In this document: piece after piece, positions 743 to 19,400 of the stretch
Layout of the letters: each line of letters begins with the position of its first letter
Numbering within the stretch: position 1 is the first letter of the stretch
Virus record (IMG/VR): IMGVR_UViG_3300017744_000209
Coordinates: 1-20,164 of that record
Source: a virus
Length of the DNA stretch: 20,164 bases
Reading direction: 5' to 3' (one strand)
Notes under the pieces: model-generated
What the model was told of the DNA's origin: nothing
Database searches by the model: none
The model's input: the letters and a program-made list of their open reading frames with translations, nothing else
Position numbers and translations under genes: made by a program

Positions 743-2223
743 GTAATAATTATCAACAAGGCGAACTTGTTGTTGATTCAGTATCTATAGTAAATCCAGA
801 AAAGGAATCAGTAGATATACTTGGATTAACATCTAACATAACCATATACGAATCAATAGATAAACCATTCTTGTCTGGTCGTATAACTGTTGTTGATGGT
901 TTAGATATTATCAAAAACTATAAACTAGTTGGTCAAGAATCACTCACAATTAAAGTGAGACAAAGAGAAGGTTCAAATGATGAGATGTCATCACCAGAAT
1001 TTTCTATTGATAAAGTATTCAGAATTTACAGTGTCACTAACATTAAAACAATTGACCAAATTACTAAATCATATGTACTACATTTTGTAGACCCCAAATT
1101 CTTTATATGTCATAAGACTAAAATTAATCAAACTCTTCGTGGTTCATATTCTAATATGTTGCTACAAGTCTTAGAAGAGAACGGAGGTTTCAAAACACTT
1201 CCTAAAGTTGGTTATGATAAATGGGACGAAACAGAACCAGGATATAATCAAGTAGTTGTACCAAATTGGAACATTAATAAGTTCATAAGTTTTATATGTG
1301 AAAATGCAGAGTTGAAATCAAACAAATCTTGGAAGAATAGTATGTTCTTTTATCAAACTCTTAGTGGTGAATTTAGATTTGATGGTTTTCAGAGTATGGT
1401 CGCAAGAGAATTTCCTATAGGGTTTGACTACTATCCAAGAAACAATGTTTCTACTGAAGACCATGACTTAAATGAAGAATTTATTGGATTGAATACTCAA
1501 ATAATAAATTACGAAATGCCTCAAAGATTCAATACAATGAAAGGTGTATCTCATGGTTCATATGCATCGATGTTAAAAACTTATGATCCAGTTAGAAAAC
1601 TAGAAGAAGAAAATGTATACTCTATAACAAAAGTCTTTGAGAGAGGAAACGATGACGGACATGTATCTAAGTTTCCTATGATAAGAACTTCTTCACCCGA
1701 AACAATTTACAAAGCAGATGATATGATTTCTTCTGCTGATAGTCCAGAGTTCAGTGAAGAAACTATAGACTATGCACCCGATGTATCATACGATTCTTAT
1801 GTCATGCACAAAGTAAATATGACAAATGCATTTTCAGATGAAGCAAAATTAGTAGACGCTAGTGGCAATAAATCTATAACACAACAAAAGGGACAAGAAT
1901 ACAGAGATTCTGGACCACTTGAAAGAAGAGCATTATTATCTATGTTTGAACAAAATGTAGTTAAAGTTGTTATACCATTTAGAAGTGATATCTCAGTTGG
2001 CACTGTAGTCAAATTGACTCTACCAACACATGAGAAAAAGGATGATGACCAACCTGGAGATGAAATGATGGATAATAGATATTTAATAGGTAAGATGACT
2101 GTAAGTATAAACCCATTAGCGAACACAGGAAAGTTGACATTACAAACAATCAAAGAAAGTTATGGTGTAGATATAACAACATATAAACCATTAGACAAAG
2201 TATCTAAACCAGAGGCATCATAA
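739..2223 (+). CDS. 27: Baseplate hub subunit gp27-like
   Basis: This is probably the hub ring protein equivalent to T4 gp27, which forms a trimer holding the gp5 spike and matching the tail tube. The N-terminal part has a hub/tube-type beta pattern, with 'KPFLSGRITVVDG' and 'LVGQESLTIKVRQREG' at about residues 44-78. The middle part (about 160-215) contains 'VVVPNWNINKFISFICENA' and 'FFYQTLSGEFRFDGF', typical of gp27/gpD-like hub proteins. The C-terminal part returns to beta structure with 'RYLIGKMTVSINPLANTGK'. At 494 residues it is about 100 longer than T4 gp27. No clear Shine-Dalgarno site precedes it: its ATG overlaps the gp53 stop by 4 bases, and its TAA overlaps the gp5 start by one. 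The position directly before gp5 supports the call. A generic hub protein without close T4 ancestry is the alternative. Confidence 0.75.
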   Translation: MSNNYQQGELVVDSVSIVNPEKESVDILGLTSNITIYESIDKPFLSGRITVVDGLDIIKNYKLVGQESLTIKVRQREGSNDEMSSPEFSIDKVFRIYSVTNIKTIDQITKSYVLHFVDPKFFICHKTKINQTLRGSYSNMLLQVLEENGGFKTLPKVGYDKWDETEPGYNQVVVPNWNINKFISFICENAELKSNKSWKNSMFFYQTLSGEFRFDGFQSMVAREFPIGFDYYPRNNVSTEDHDLNEEFIGLNTQIINYEMPQRFNTMKGVSHGSYASMLKTYDPVRKLEEENVYSITKVFERGNDDGHVSKFPMIRTSSPETIYKADDMISSADSPEFSEETIDYAPDVSYDSYVMHKVNMTNAFSDEAKLVDASGNKSITQQKGQEYRDSGPLERRALLSMFEQNVVKVVIPFRSDISVGTVVKLTLPTHEKKDDDQPGDEMMDNRYLIGKMTVSINPLANTGKLTLQTIKESYGVDITTYKPLDKVSKPEAS

Positions 2224-3260
2224 TGGATTGGTATTACGGCATAGTAGAAGATAGAAACGACCCACTGAAGATTGGTCGTGTTAGAGTTCGTGTTCATGGT
2301 TGTCATACGGATGATAAGAATAAAATATCCTCACCAGACTTACCTTGGTCACATGTTATCATGCCCACAACAAATGCTGGTCTTGGTGGTTTTGGTATTC
2401 AACATTCTCTCGTAGAGGGAACTACTGTATTTGGTTTCTGGAGAGATGAAGACATGCAAGACTTTGTTGTCATGGGTGTTCAACAAGGTATCTCACAACA
2501 AGGATATAAAGAAACTATAACCGATGAATTAATTCTTCGTAGTGTAGATAAAGGTTTCAATGACCCTAGAAGAAAGACTGAGGCAGATTACAGTGGAACG
2601 AATGATGGTTTAAATCCACCTAGTGCTCCACAAAGACCAAACTCATTATCTCTTTCACTAGAAAAATCTCCACAATTACTTAAAGATGCCGGCATAACAT
2701 ATGGTGGGGCAGGTTCAAAGAGAGAAGAATTTACAGAGGCAGATAAAGAGTTGCCTTACTATCCTTTAGTCAAAGATGCAACAGATGTAAATGTATTTAC
2801 AACAGGTGATGCAAAGTATGACTCAAGGGATATGTCCGAGTATATCACAAATGCTAAGTCAAATGCAACCCCTATGTATCCTTTCAACAAAGCATTGTAC
2901 ACTGAATCTGGTCACATCTTAGAACTAGATGATACAAGAGGCAATGAGAGAATCTCAGTAGAACATAGAACAGGTACTTTCTATGAAATAGATGCAGACG
3001 GTAATGAGATTCATAGAGTAGTGAATGACAACTATACAGTTATATGTAAAGATAACGACCTATTCGTTGGTGGTAATGTCAATGTTAGAGTTTTAGGTGA
3101 TGCGAAGATACACGCAAATGGTAAAGTAGACATCAAAGGTTATAACGATGGTAAGATTGATGTCTCTGGTAAACTAGAATTATCAGCTGGTGATAACATT
3201 ACTTTGAAATCTGGTAAAGAGGTTATTGTACAAGCACAGAAATTTAGACCTAACAGTTAA
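2223..3260 (+). CDS. 5: Baseplate central spike gp5-like, without lysozyme domain
   Basis: This is the cell-puncturing spike protein, a trimer bound beneath the gp27 hub. Residues 1-95 form the gp5/VgrG-type OB-fold, shown by 'WYYGIVEDRNDPLKIGRVRV', 'DLPWSHVIMPTT' and 'GTTVFGFWRDEDMQDFVVMG'. Residues 96-215 are a polar, proline-containing linker. Residues 225-340 begin with the VgrG/gp5C signature 'ESGHILELDDTRGNERI' and 'HRTGTFYEIDADG', then short repeats ending in D-I-K-G, V-S-G-K and L-K-S-G-K that fit a triple-stranded beta-helix. T4 gp5 is 575 residues with a lysozyme domain between these two parts. Here, at 345 residues, that domain is absent and no lysozyme-like catalytic segment is visible. 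An AGAGG Shine-Dalgarno match lies 7 bases before the ATG, inside the end of the gp27 gene. Confidence 0.9.
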   Translation: MDWYYGIVEDRNDPLKIGRVRVRVHGCHTDDKNKISSPDLPWSHVIMPTTNAGLGGFGIQHSLVEGTTVFGFWRDEDMQDFVVMGVQQGISQQGYKETITDELILRSVDKGFNDPRRKTEADYSGTNDGLNPPSAPQRPNSLSLSLEKSPQLLKDAGITYGGAGSKREEFTEADKELPYYPLVKDATDVNVFTTGDAKYDSRDMSEYITNAKSNATPMYPFNKALYTESGHILELDDTRGNERISVEHRTGTFYEIDADGNEIHRVVNDNYTVICKDNDLFVGGNVNVRVLGDAKIHANGKVDIKGYNDGKIDVSGKLELSAGDNITLKSGKEVIVQAQKFRPNS

Positions 3261-3262
3261 TC

Positions 3263-5140
3263 ATGACAACACTAACAGAAGTCTTAGAGAAACAAGTAGA
3301 AGAGCAGAAATTAGAAACAGAATCATCTAAGAGTATTGCTGATAAATTTCCTTGTCCAGAAGGAGACATATTCTCTCTACCAACTAGAGCAGATATCACA
3401 AACGCATTTAATGAAATCGCTGCCATACCTGGTGAACTTCAAGCAAAATTTCAAGAGAATAAAGCAAAACGAGAAAAAGAAATTGCTGAACTACAAGAAC
3501 TCATAAAGAATCCTGAGTTGTCAGAAGAAGAGATTGCAGAAATACAAGCAGAGATTGAAAAGAAAGAAAACTACATTCAGACAGCATTAGTAGAAGGAAT
3601 GCAAAAAGAGATAGATGAAGTTGTAAAGACAATAGAAGAATTTGTAGAAACATTAGAAAAAGCATTGTCGCCATATTGGACTAAAACTGAGGATAAACAA
3701 AATAGAGATTGGCAAAAAGAGGCGAAAGATGCCTTTGAAGAATTACTTGCAGAGTTTCATACTTACATACCAGTAAAGATTGCAGAGTTAGTTGGTAAGT
3801 TAGTACCGTTTGATTTCAATATCAATATTATGGGACTATCAATCAACATTTTAAAACTAGTTACCAGTCCTAGTTATCGTACAGAGTTGCAAGACCAACT
3901 TGCAGGTAAGAATTTCGTCACTCAAATAGTTGCTAAACAAAAACAAATTGCAGACTTAAAAGAGAAACAAAAGAATCCTGATTTAACTTTAGATGAACAT
4001 GCAGACTTACAAGACCAGATAAACAAACTGCAAGAAGAAATAGATGCATTATACATAACAAAAAAAGAACTTGTAGATAAGTTTTTCAACATGATACCAG
4101 AAGAGTTTAGAAACTTTGATGGTGAGTTTGGTGTTATAGATGATGAGGCAAAAGCCAAGTTATCTTGGAAGTACATTAAGACTGAAATCAAAGAATGGGT
4201 TCAAAATGCACATGTCAAAGCATTTGAAAAACTCATAAAGGTATTTAAAGAAATTTGGGACTTACTTGGTTTACCTAAATTACCTTTCTCAGAATTGATT
4301 GCTATTATGAATTTAGATATTGGTGCATTGATAGAGGCAAAGATTGCATCAATCAAAGAGAAGTTCAAACAAACAAAAGCAGGAATGCTTGTTGACATAA
4401 ATCGACTTAAGAAAGAAATTGAAGAAATCAAAACAAAGATGGCAGATGATAACATTAGTATGGATGACCATATAAAATTATCAGAAGAGTTAGACAAGAA
4501 AGAAGAAGAGAAAAGAAAATTAGAAGACGAACTTCTAAAAGAAGTTAGAGATTTTCATCAAGGTATATTAGATTCTATATCAGAGATAAGTATTTTTGGT
4601 TATGATATTCTAAAAATGATAGGTGGTAAAATAGAATCCACCACTGAATCTATAGAAGAAAAGATTGCAGAGATTTCTTTAGAATTTCAGGACTTTAAAT
4701 TGAACTGGCATAAAAAGATTCTCTTTGCATGGGTTAAGATTGTTAAGAAGTTTTTCAGTGCAATAGGTTTAGGTAAGATATTTGAGTTCATGTTCTTAAC
4801 ATGGTGCGACTTTCTAAAACTAATCGGTATGCCATTTACGATTCCTGGAATTGCTGGCATCGCAGGCGTCATGTCTACTAGTCAAAGAAACACACCAGTG
4901 TCACCTAGACCAAGTGGTAATGATGTAAACATTGATAACGAAGTTAATTTTCAGACAACAGACGGAGAAACAGATAGATTTACCATTCCAACTTCGTCTG
5001 GAGATTTAAAAGTGTTTAAAAATGGCGTAGAACAGACCCTAGGTCTCTTGGGTACAGGTGATTATAGAATCTCAGATGGCAAAATAGTTTTCAATTCGAT
5101 GCCTTTAGAGAATGAAAGTGTATCAATACTTAAAATATAA
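3263..5140 (+). CDS. Large helical protein with three internal repeats, unknown function
   Basis: I do not recognise a family. The 625-residue protein is strongly helical and rich in E, K, I and L. Three helical hairpins recur at residues 72-102, 227-263 and 380-428, each turning at a similar point (KNPELS, KNPDLT, DDNISM). Each is followed by an amphipathic to hydrophobic stretch, giving a period of about 154 residues. Residues 490-536 are hydrophobic, with L-G-L and a 'GIAGIAGV' end. A proline/serine linker (540-552) leads to a small beta domain (about 560-625) with 'DLKVFKNGVEQTLG' and 'DYRISDGKIVFNS', a pattern seen in phage tail proteins. It starts 2 bases after gp5 with no clear ribosome site, so it is probably translated by coupling. 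Its position beside the hub genes suggests a tail hub, tape-measure or spike-associated protein. This is inference. Confidence 0.5.
   Translation: MTTLTEVLEKQVEEQKLETESSKSIADKFPCPEGDIFSLPTRADITNAFNEIAAIPGELQAKFQENKAKREKEIAELQELIKNPELSEEEIAEIQAEIEKKENYIQTALVEGMQKEIDEVVKTIEEFVETLEKALSPYWTKTEDKQNRDWQKEAKDAFEELLAEFHTYIPVKIAELVGKLVPFDFNINIMGLSINILKLVTSPSYRTELQDQLAGKNFVTQIVAKQKQIADLKEKQKNPDLTLDEHADLQDQINKLQEEIDALYITKKELVDKFFNMIPEEFRNFDGEFGVIDDEAKAKLSWKYIKTEIKEWVQNAHVKAFEKLIKVFKEIWDLLGLPKLPFSELIAIMNLDIGALIEAKIASIKEKFKQTKAGMLVDINRLKKEIEEIKTKMADDNISMDDHIKLSEELDKKEEEKRKLEDELLKEVRDFHQGILDSISEISIFGYDILKMIGGKIESTTESIEEKIAEISLEFQDFKLNWHKKILFAWVKIVKKFFSAIGLGKIFEFMFLTWCDFLKLIGMPFTIPGIAGIAGVMSTSQRNTPVSPRPSGNDVNIDNEVNFQTTDGETDRFTIPTSSGDLKVFKNGVEQTLGLLGTGDYRISDGKIVFNSMPLENESVSILKI
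3476..4876 (+). repeat. Three tandem protein-level repeats of about 154 residues
   Basis: The repeat units run from about residue 72 to 226, 227 to 379 and 380 to 538 of the helical protein. Each begins with a charged helical hairpin: 'EIAELQELIKNPELSEEEIA', 'QIADLKEKQKNPDLTLDEHA' and 'EIEEIKTKMADDNISMDDHI'. Each continues into a more hydrophobic section with an L-G-L or M-G-L turn. The copies have diverged strongly at the DNA level, so this is an old duplication rather than a recent one. Confidence 0.65.
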
Positions 5141-5164: not shown

Positions 5165-5593
5165 ATGGCAAATCTAAACGACTACTCAAAACCTAATTCT
5201 AAAGTAAATGCTCAGAAGAACGAGTATACAGACTTAGATATACTATTTAGTGCGAATCCTATATCAGGCGATATCACAACTAAGAAGGATTCAGATGCAG
5301 TTAAGAGGTCAGTAAGAAACATTTTGTTAACCAATCACTATGAAAGACCATTTAAACCAAATTTTGGTGCAAATTTGAGGTCTCAACTATTCGAATTAGA
5401 TGGTATTGGTGCAAAAAAGAGAATAACAAAAGACATAATAGAATCATTATCAATATTAGAACCTAGAATTGGCAATATAAGAGTAGATATAAGTGATTCA
5501 GAGGCAAACAACATAGATGTAAGAGTCAGTTATGTCATTAGAAACGGATTAAAACAATCAAGTGTAGATTTTACAGTAAGTAGGGTACGATAA
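5165..5593 (+). CDS. 25: Baseplate wedge subunit gp25-like
   Basis: This is a gp25-like wedge protein, the sheath-polymerisation starter that forms part of the inner baseplate core with gp6 and gp53. At 142 residues it is close to T4 gp25 (132). The hallmark EPR motif is present at residues 99-101 within 'ILEPRIGNIRVD'. An upstream segment, 'LLTNHYERPFKPNFGANLRS' (about 54-73), matches the family pattern of a helix followed by F-x-P-x-F-G. The first 40 residues are a polar extension. The start at 5165 is the first in-frame ATG before this conserved region, but no Shine-Dalgarno site sits at normal distance; GGAG is 16 bases upstream. The TAA overlaps the gp6 ATG by one base (TAATG), so the two are probably coupled. 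Confidence 0.92.
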   Translation: MANLNDYSKPNSKVNAQKNEYTDLDILFSANPISGDITTKKDSDAVKRSVRNILLTNHYERPFKPNFGANLRSQLFELDGIGAKKRITKDIIESLSILEPRIGNIRVDISDSEANNIDVRVSYVIRNGLKQSSVDFTVSRVR

Positions 5594-16400: not shown

Positions 16401-19400
16401 CACGCAAAACTTATTTTAAAACAAGGACAGACAACACCAAATAATCAAATAACAGTATTATTTGATATGTTTGTAGGTGGTTCTGGTGATTTCTATGATG
16501 TAAATTCATATACAAATAGTATTTCATATAAAGACATTCCTAACTTCTCACCAAACAAAGTAGACTTGGGTGGTTTTGAACCAGATGGACAATTTGAACT
16601 TGCAGATGCAGTAGACTTTAGACCATCAGTTGGTCAACTATTTGGTAATGCAGATTTAGTTAGTCAGAGTTATGTATTCAATATTGCAAGTATATTAGAT
16701 GTATCAGACTACAGTAGTGGTGATGGTACAGGTCACTTAATATCTCCATTTGCATATGAAGCAAGAAGTTTTGAATCCTCTAGAGATAATCTATTAGGAG
16801 TATCTACTGCTGATATTACGACAGCACATTCATCATATTCAAGATGTCCTTTGCCAACATCAATGATTAAGTCAAACATAGAGTTCTATGTGCCTAGAAT
16901 CGATAAAGTATTCTTACATAGAAGTGGTAAATTCGAAGTTGCACAAGGTAATCCGACCTTAACACCACAAAGACCAAATTCAATTGATGATTCTTTAGAA
17001 ATGTTCGAATTGTTTATACCTGCATTTACAAGAAATGTAAAACAAATACAAGTAAAAACAAAAGACTACAGAAGATTTACAATGGGCGACATTGGTAAAA
17101 TCAATCAGAGAGTCACAAACTTAGAAAGAATTACTGCATTGTCTTTATTAGAGAAAGACACACAAACAAAACAGATATTAGATGCACAAGGTTTCGATAG
17201 ATTCAAATCTGGTTTCTTAGTAGATAACTTCAGAGGTCACAAAATTGGTGATGTATCTCATCCTGATTATCATGTTGGTATAGATACTAAATTGGGACAA
17301 TTAAGACCAGAATCAGTATCAAACTTCTTTGATATAGAATTAAATGCATCTGGTTCAACTGGTTATCAGCAGACTGGTGATTTAATTACATTACCTTACT
17401 CACAAGTATCATATGTAAATCAGGATAAGGCATCTAGACATGTCAATGTTAATCCATATCATGTATTTGCATTTATAGGTAATGTCAAATTAACTCCTGG
17501 TTCTGATATATGGAATGATACAGAACAATTACCAGAAGTTAGAATCAACAGAGAAGGAAACTTTGACGCTGTTCTTGCAGAGAATCAAAACTCACTTGGA
17601 ACAATATGGAATAACTGGCAGACAACATGGGTTGGTGAACCAACCGTAGTTAGTTCTTCAGTAGATGCAGCTGTTCCTGGCAATTGGTCTGGTGACCCTG
17701 CTCAAGGTGGTGAATGGGTTCAAGGTACAATCATAACAACAGAGATTACCGAAACACCAGAAATTCAATCAAGACAAGGTGTTAATACTTCAGTAGTTGA
17801 AGACTTTGTAGAAACAAGAAACGATAGAGTTGTTAGTGTCAGTGTTATACCTTTCATTAGAAGTAGAGAGATAACAGCAGTAGGAACTAACTTAAAACCA
17901 AACACAAAACACTTTGTATACTTTGATGGTATCAGAGTAGATGGTTATGTCACACCTAGTAGTGCTGACTTCTCACAAGACGGAACAACAAACAAGGGTG
18001 TTGGAATAAAAACAAATGGTAATGGTAAAGTAGAATGTAAGTTCTTAATACCTAATGACAACTTCCAAAGATTCCCAACAGGACAAAGAGAATTAAAGAT
18101 AACATCTCAGTCATCGAATCAAAGTAATCCAGATTCAATGGGTGCAGAGATTTATCAAGCACAAGGTCTCTTAAATAGTTCACAAACAGAAATAGTATCT
18201 ACTAGAAATGGTAGAGTAGTGACAGAAAGATTATCAGGCGAAAGAACAATTACAAGAAGAGGTGAAAGATTAAATGTGACAGGAGATGGTTCATTACCAC
18301 CCCCACCACCACCTATTGCGCCGCCTCCACCAATACCACCGACACCACCACCTATGCCACCAACTCCGGTATATGTGCCAGTGCCGAATCCGGTGCCTGT
18401 GCCTGTGCCAGTCCCTGTACCAGTTCCGGTACCTGTGCCTGTGCCTACACCGCCGGTGCCTGTTCCTGTACCACCTCCTGTACCATTACCTCCAAGGTTC
18501 CCACCCGCTGATTTAATGGTTCTTCCAAGAGAAGACAGAAGAATATTTGACTTTGATATTCCAGCAGAACCAAGAGGTTGGCAAGACCCATTAGCAGAAT
18601 CATTCATGGTAGAATCTGATGGCGGTATGTTCCTAACATCTATAGATGTATTCTTTAAGAGTAAGGCAACTAGTTTACCTGTATCAGTAGAAATCAGAAA
18701 TATGATAAATGGATATCCAGGACAGACAACTATACCATTCTCAATTGTGACAAAGAATCCAGATGAAGTCAATACTTCAGATGATGGTTCATCCGCAACT
18801 ACATTTACATTTGAGTCACCTGTATACCTAGAAGACAAACATGAATATTGTTTTGTTGTGTATACTAACTCAACAGATTACGAGTGTTTCATTTCCAGAA
18901 TGGGCGAAACAGATTTAATTACTGGACAGACAATATCAGGACAACCATACGCTGGTTCATTGTTCATGTCTCAGAACGCATCTACATGGACAGCAGAACA
19001 AACAGATGACTTGAAGTTTAATATGAGAGTCGCTAAGTTTAATACAACTACAGCTGCAAACATCGTGTTTAACAACGCACATTTACCACCTAAGAAATTG
19101 CAGAATAATTCAATAGAAACTTTTTCTAATCAATCATTCTTTAGAGTATACTCTTACTCACATGGTATGTACGACAATCAATCGAATGTTGTTATATATG
19201 GCGTAGAAGGAGATAAGAAGAATGGTGTATTAACTGTAGCAGGTTCAACAACAGGAACTCCAACTGCTGGTACATATAACAATAGTGGCGCCAATTGGGA
19301 TTCCACAGGATATACCTACAGTGGTACTGGTACAGGACTTAAGATTGATACAATAACAGTTAATAGTGGAAATCAAATTAGTTCAGTGACAATCAAAGAC

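What the first reader, a model, noticed from the sequence alone, without database searches (positions are those of the whole stretch)
3263..5140. Triplicated helical protein next to the spike: candidate tape-measure or new hub protein
The sequence shows three units of about 154 residues, each a helical hairpin followed by a hydrophobic segment, with a small beta domain at the C-terminus. The gene sits immediately after gp5 and before gp25, where T4 has no such gene. Hub and tape-measure proteins (gp29 in T4) diverge too far to be recognised easily in marine T4-like phages. At 625 residues it is near gp29 in length (about 590), and repeats plus a hydrophobic C-terminal part are common in tape measures. 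Against this, the helical-hairpin turns would break a single long helix, so a hub-plug or chaperone role is equally possible.
Basis: partly seen in the sequence, partly recalled or inferred. Interest (0 to 1): 0.65.

Follow-up and report, generated by a model that had tools for sequence, protein, structure and literature searches.

The report
Helical replacement for phage spike tip
This gene of an uncultured marine T4-like phage is not the tail ruler: it most likely encodes a new kind of helical protein that takes the place of the sharp tip on the phage's cell-piercing spike, because related phages carry either this gene or a known tip, never both.

Summary
The 625-aa ORF at 3263-5140 lies between gp5 and gp25 and has three helical-hairpin units (offset ~155 aa) plus a C-terminal beta module. 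The tape-measure reading fails: longer related contigs carry a separate large ORF beside gp26, which in one of these genomes matches tape-measure profiles (phrog_58, E=5e-15), and relatives lacking the finding's gene keep that ORF.

The gene belongs to a large unannotated marine family (at least 204 viral contigs; one sequenced phage, C48C1; 293 to 862 aa) that sits directly after gp5. In 126 distinct gp5 loci, 88 carry the family and no HxH apex on gp5, 36 carry the HxH (iron-binding) apex and no family, 0 carry both, and the remaining 2 carry a PAAR gene. On a gp6 tree the tip type switches at least 7-12 times. gp5's C-terminal part and this protein co-vary (partial r=0.73), and in near-identical genomes the last ~52 residues of gp5 and residues 1-442 are exchanged as one block.

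Best reading: a helical spike-tip (cap) protein replacing PAAR or the HxH apex. Neither AlphaFold model matched a solved fold. Presence in the virion, binding to gp5 and a pseudo-threefold cap are inferred, not shown.

The parts
3263..5140 (+). The finding's gene: 625-aa helical protein, proposed spike-tip (cap) protein
   Evidence: ORF; family always directly after gp5; alternates with HxH apex and PAAR
2223..3260 (+). gp5, spike protein without lysozyme domain and without an HxH apex; ends ...QAQKFRPNS
   Evidence: Gp5_OB and phrog_430; C-terminal comparison
3103..4589 (+). Block exchanged as one unit against near-identical genome G002 (L065): last ~52 residues of gp5 plus residues 1-442 of the finding's protein
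   Evidence: blastn: 98.9% identical up to 3103 and 96.9% from 4589, divergent between
3353..3385 (+). N-terminal cysteine motif CPEGDIFSLPT (C31)
   Evidence: Nearly invariant in alignments A2 and A5; present in 91 of 92 members
3425..3664 (+). Hairpin 1 (residues 55-134)
   Evidence: AlphaFold2 model; repeat comparison
3908..4090 (+). Hairpin 2 (residues 216-276)
   Evidence: AlphaFold2 model; repeat comparison
4319..4582 (+). Hairpin 3 (residues 353-440)
   Evidence: AlphaFold2 model; repeat comparison
4799..4834 (+). C-terminal cysteine motif of the core, TWCDFLKLIGMP (C515)
   Evidence: C515 invariant in A2 and A5
4925..5140 (+). C-terminal beta module, optional in the family and exchanged on its own in L006 (block 4913-5116)
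   Evidence: Strands in the model; fold hits of 64-78 residues to tail-fibre proteins in BFVD, prob 1.0 but E>1e-3; absent from short members; L006 block
5165..5593 (+). gp25, baseplate wedge; downstream border of the tip cassette
   Evidence: GPW_gp25 2e-14

Best explanation
The protein is a spike-tip (cap) protein of the contractile tail. In related phages gp5 either ends in its own HxH iron-binding apex, or a PAAR protein is made separately (as gp5.4 in T4). Here gp5 stops bluntly after its short beta-helix, and this mostly alpha-helical protein, made from the next gene, would sit on that blunt end and lead the spike through the host envelope when the sheath contracts. Its core probably binds the last strands of the gp5 trimer; the three hairpins would project as prongs; the C-terminal beta module is an optional add-on. 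Three related units in one chain would suit a single subunit capping a three-fold trimer. Exchange of the tip cassette between otherwise near-identical phages suggests adaptation to something in the host envelope. Shown: gene order, strict alternation with known tips, co-exchange and co-variation with the gp5 end, a tape-measure candidate elsewhere. Inferred: presence in the virion, binding to gp5, stoichiometry, pseudo-threefold arrangement, role in penetration.
For: Alternation: 88 family without HxH, 36 HxH without family, 0 both, 2 neither, and both of those have a PAAR gene; in loci fetched by gp5 alone 28/28/0/1. PAAR absent from 16 other records including 151 kb and 140 kb, and from complete C48C1; family absent from the apex and PAAR records searched. 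Tip type changes 12 times on a gp6 tree, 7 forced by well-supported branches. gp5 C-terminal part co-varies with this protein given gp5 N-terminal and gp6 distances: partial r 0.73, 0 of 500 permutations as high; gp5 N-terminal part given gp6 only 0.14. Block exchange of gp5 end plus residues 1-442, and a second pair L090/L215. gp5 end type matches member class: KLNS with short members 36 of 39, RPNS with long 18 of 18. Known precedents: gp5.4 PAAR binds the last strand of T4 gp5 and forms the tip (PMC4576200); it binds as a monomer on the trimer (PMC7600766); HxH apex binds iron (PMC11948020).
Against: No direct evidence of virion presence or gp5 binding. The cassettes may have arisen once each and been swapped ready-made, so the alternation is not 126 independent events; adjacency of gp5's end and this gene also produces some co-variation by linkage. 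The PAAR and HxH tips are compact and beta-structured, whereas this is large and helical with no known fold. Cyanophage ACG-2014d has neither HxH nor this family next to gp5, only a weak PAAR-like hit elsewhere, so the rule is shown only for this lineage.
Confidence: 0.62

Rival explanations
1. Assembly factor: the protein is a chaperone or clamp that helps an apex-less gp5 trimerise or load onto the hub, and it is not in the finished virion.
For: The same alternation and co-variation data would follow if the apex is a folding nucleus whose loss must be compensated; no virion data exist.
Against: Large size, optional hairpins and an optional beta module resembling tail-fibre domains and exchanged on its own are more natural for an exposed virion part; PAAR, a virion tip in T4, fills the same slot in L213.
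Confidence: 0.15
2. Spike-borne cargo: the protein rides on the spike as an effector delivered into the host (as PAAR- or VgrG-linked effectors do in type VI secretion), with capping only incidental.
For: Rapid cassette exchange in near-identical genomes; optional C-terminal module; PAAR proteins are known carriers of effectors (PMC8651086).
Against: No catalytic or toxin domain recognised; the conserved part is the whole helical core with its two cysteine motifs, not a cap plus a variable payload.
Confidence: 0.13
3. Hub plug: it fills the lumen of the gp27-gp5 hub rather than capping the spike.
For: Position among hub genes; helical character.
Against: The coupling is to the gp5 C-terminal part, not the gp5 N-terminal part that faces the hub; it alternates with tips, not with hub parts.
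Confidence: 0.05
4. Tape measure protein, a diverged gp29.
For: Long, helical, repeated; length near gp29; weak sub-threshold PHROG tape-measure hits (E 0.74 for the window protein, 0.04 for the C48C1 homologue).
Against: A separate tape-measure-like ORF in the same genomes (L102 phrog_58 5e-15; L103, from a genome 97-99% identical to the window around this cassette, phrog_23574 2e-7); that ORF persists when this gene is absent; length 293 to 862 aa among relatives; no gp29 similarity.
Confidence: 0.02

Closest known systems
T4 gp5.4 / PAAR-repeat spike-tip proteins (PF05488)
   Same: Gene lies just after gp5; one tip per spike; in L213 a PAAR gene occupies the very slot between gp5 and gp25
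   Different: PAAR is about 100 aa and beta-structured; this family is 293-862 aa, mostly helical, without PAAR similarity
HxH iron-binding spike apex of P2 gpV / phi92 type (Pfam Apex PF18946)
   Same: Alternates strictly with it in related phages, so probably the same job
   Different: The apex is the last ~30 residues of the spike protein itself; here the spike protein is blunt and a separate gene follows
CDS0189 of Phage C48C1 (OQ984149, Kyanoviridae), 'hypothetical protein'
   Same: Only homologue found among 50,697 phage records; same position between gp5 and gp25; all three core units
   Different: 451 aa; lacks most hairpin sequence and the C-terminal beta module; a 76-aa ORF lies between it and gp5
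T4 gp29 tape measure (PF25671, phrog_1283)
   Same: Similar length, largely helical
   Different: No profile similarity; another ORF in these genomes matches tape-measure families

Membership tests
Tail tape measure protein (T4 gp29 and others) | Matches a tape-measure profile | tested here: not met
   No significant Pfam, PHROG or NCBIfam tape-measure hit; HHalign to gp29 probability 0.35%
Tail tape measure protein (T4 gp29 and others) | Present in every phage with this tail; no other candidate | tested here: not met
   Missing from 36 HxH loci and 2 PAAR loci; a separate ORF matches tape-measure families and persists without this gene
Tail tape measure protein (T4 gp29 and others) | Length proportional to tail length | not testable with these tools
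   No tail measurements for these uncultured phages; family length varies 293-862 aa
PAAR spike-tip protein | PF05488 domain match | tested here: not met
   No PAAR hit; HHalign to T4 gp5.4 negligible
gpV-type HxH apex | HxH metal motif at the end of the spike protein | tested here: not met
   Absent from the last 60 residues of all 88 family-bearing gp5
Spike-tip protein (functional class) | Encoded directly after the spike gene and mutually exclusive with other tips | tested here: met
Spike-tip protein (functional class) | Evolves together with the spike's C-terminal end | tested here: met
   Partial r 0.73; block exchange; end types
Spike-tip protein (functional class) | Binds the end of the gp5 trimer in the virion | not testable with these tools
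   Needs co-expression, cryo-EM or multimer prediction
Spike-tip protein (functional class) | Monomer with (pseudo-)threefold match to the trimer | tested here: inconclusive

The most novel reading that the evidence does not exclude
A third class of contractile-tail spike tip: an alpha-helical, triplicated single-chain cap with three coiled-coil prongs that replaces PAAR or the HxH apex on the gp5 trimer, common in marine T4-like phages and exchanged between them together with the end of gp5 to match host envelopes.
Probability: 0.35. Interest if true: 0.78.

Novelty: new variant of a known kind. Interest (0 to 1): 0.62.

Why it matters
Breaching of the cell envelope by contractile tails is thought to depend on a sharp metal-bound tip, either PAAR or the HxH apex. 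A widespread marine lineage that swaps these for a large helical protein would challenge the idea that a hard beta-structured point is needed, would point to a host-specific step at penetration, and names a protein family whose function is directly testable by co-expression with the gp5 end. It also gives a function hypothesis for hundreds of unannotated marine phage genes.

Tried and rejected
Tape measure: rejected. Homology to T4 gp27, gp28, gp29, gp5.1 and gp5.4: none by HHalign. Fold search: nothing at E<=1e-3 in the PDB for the full model or the 360-aa hairpin-less core; BFVD was searched with the full model only and its top hits were mostly the C-terminal beta module. Loss of a whole unit in short relatives (my first reading of the C48C1 match): rejected, since all three core units remain and hairpin sequence is missing. 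Weak hits to KIF21A, ABC_tran_CTD, WXG100 and mycoplas_twoTM are far below cut-offs and typical of coiled coils. Pfam Apex profile over whole records: no hits even in HxH-bearing ones, so that profile is too insensitive here and an HxH pattern was used instead. An overlapping-unit comparison (V1-V2) was an artefact and was redone. Paper searches found nothing on this family.

Full report
Observation. The ORF at 3263-5140 (+) encodes 625 aa between gp5 and gp25 in a 20,164-bp IMG/VR fragment whose other recognised genes are gp53, a phrog_350 tail protein, gp5, gp25, gp6 and a gp8 homologue. The three-unit repeat is real: best self-offsets 155 and 157, shuffle z-scores 10.4, 6.5 and 4.3, profile-profile E-values 2.6e-10 to 2.6e-7, well above shuffled controls. 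AlphaFold2 gives three long helical hairpins and a C-terminal beta module. The hairpins carry most of the repeat signal. In the hairpin-less core, units 2 and 3 are related (E 7e-6) and unit 1 is marginal.

Family. tblastn finds one homologue among 50,697 phage records: CDS0189 of Phage C48C1, also between gp5 and gp25. IMG/VR holds at least 204 relatives. Complete-looking members in hand range from 293 to 862 aa. Short members keep the three core units but lack most of the hairpin sequence and the beta module. Two cysteine motifs, CPxxDIFxLPT near the start and TFCDxLKLIGxP near the end of the core, run through the family. A motif scan of 84,980 bacterial and archaeal genomes found no relative.

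Not the tape measure. The longer contigs carry a different large ORF beside gp26 and a ~126-aa membrane-segment protein (653-781 aa in family-bearing records; 492 aa in C48C1). In G001, which also holds the 656-aa homologue, this ORF matches phrog_58 'tail length tape measure' at 5e-15 and further tape-measure families; in G002, 97-99% identical to the window around the cassette, it matches a tape-measure family at 2e-7. These ORFs are very divergent and three of the five tested had no family hit that names them, so for those the assignment rests on position and composition. The same ORF is present in five relatives that lack the finding's gene (one is cut by the contig end). The finding's protein has no profile similarity to T4 gp29.

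What takes its place when it is missing. In the gp25-containing loci without the family, gp25 nearly always follows gp5 directly, and gp5 is longer and ends in ...LxTHxHxxxxGSSAG.... This is the HxH pattern of the iron-binding spike apex (Browning et al. 2012, cited in PMC11948020; Pfam Apex matches L125 weakly, E 0.03). Over 126 distinct gp5 loci, 88 have the family and no HxH, 36 have HxH and no family, none has both, and 2 have neither; those two carry a PAAR gene near gp5 (L213, E 1.6e-15, exactly between gp5 and gp25; L021, E 7.5e-11). Restricted to loci fetched by gp5 alone, the numbers are 28, 28, 0 and 1. PAAR is absent from the other 16 records searched, including 151-kb and 140-kb ones, and from complete C48C1. 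The family is absent from the apex and PAAR records searched. On a gp6 tree of 129 loci the tip type changes 12 times; for the family label alone 11, of which well-supported branches force 7. The loci are related and cassettes may be swapped ready-made, so these counts are not independent origins. Still, no switch among the sampled loci has produced a double or an empty tip.

Coupling to the gp5 end. Window and L065 are 98.9% identical up to 3103 and 96.9% from 4589. Between them lies a divergent block holding the last ~52 residues of gp5 and residues 1-442 of the protein. A second pair, L090 and L215, shows the same pattern at protein level. Over 84 family-bearing loci the distance of the gp5 C-terminal part correlates with the distance of this protein after removing gp5 N-terminal and gp6 distances (partial r 0.73, 0 of 500 permutations as high), while gp5 N-terminal distance given gp6 correlates only at 0.14. 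gp5 ends of type KLNS go with short members (36 of 39) and RPNS with long ones (18 of 18). L006 differs from the window mainly in the C-terminal beta-module region (4913-5116), so that module is exchanged on its own.

Mechanism. In T4 the gp5 trimer ends in a beta-helix whose last strand binds gp5.4, a PAAR protein that forms the membrane-attacking tip (PMC4576200). gp5.4 binds as a monomer, and the tip complex contacts the periplasmic chaperone PpiD (PMC7600766). By position, alternation and co-variation the finding's protein occupies that place. The proposed mechanism is that its core caps the blunt gp5 end while the hairpins and beta module project. Three related units in one chain could match the three-fold spike, as PAAR does by pseudo-threefold symmetry (own knowledge). 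Binding, virion presence and symmetry are inferences; no coordinates or multimer prediction were available. Neither AlphaFold model, the full protein (pTM 0.72) or the core (pTM 0.83), matched a solved fold at E<=1e-3.

Verdict. I place it as a new variant of spike tip: it probably works like PAAR or the apex but belongs to neither family by any tested feature.

Noticed in passing
L157:3873-5963 and L160:1932-3977: Two apex-type gp5 proteins (696 and 681 aa) carry a long helical, glutamate-rich insert inside the C-terminal half, before the HxH end; an unusual helical stretch in a spike.
   Followed up: no
L016:21437-21667 (C48C1) and L013:6789-8879: Extra ORFs (76 and 696 aa) between gp5 and the family gene, both with the short Pfam 'Phage tail tip domain' PF24243 (E 1.9e-9 and 3.4e-8).
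   Followed up: partly
L006:4815-6800 against window 4913-5116: Only the C-terminal beta module region of the finding's gene is replaced in an otherwise ~99% identical stretch.
   Followed up: partly
L005:2677-4845 (minus strand); similar in L008, L061, L245-L249: Between gp2 and gp4 homologues lie genes that look like a sugar-nucleotide (CMP-KDO-type) cytidylyltransferase, a HAD-type phosphatase and an unknown protein, i.e. possible surface-sugar genes inside the tail cluster (by eye, not profile-tested).
   Followed up: no
L245:8559-8939, L246:3939-4313, L008:291-671: A conserved ~126-aa protein with membrane-like segments always sits between gp26 and the tape-measure-like ORF.
   Followed up: no
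L020:738-3794 (Synechococcus phage ACG-2014d): The gene after gp26 in this cyanophage (1018 aa, phrog_790, VanY-type peptidase domain) sits where the tape-measure-like ORF lies in the marine relatives; possibly a tape measure carrying a peptidase.
   Followed up: partly
window 18393-18446: Short tandem repeat (GTGCCT, 9 copies) in the 3' part of the window.
   Followed up: no
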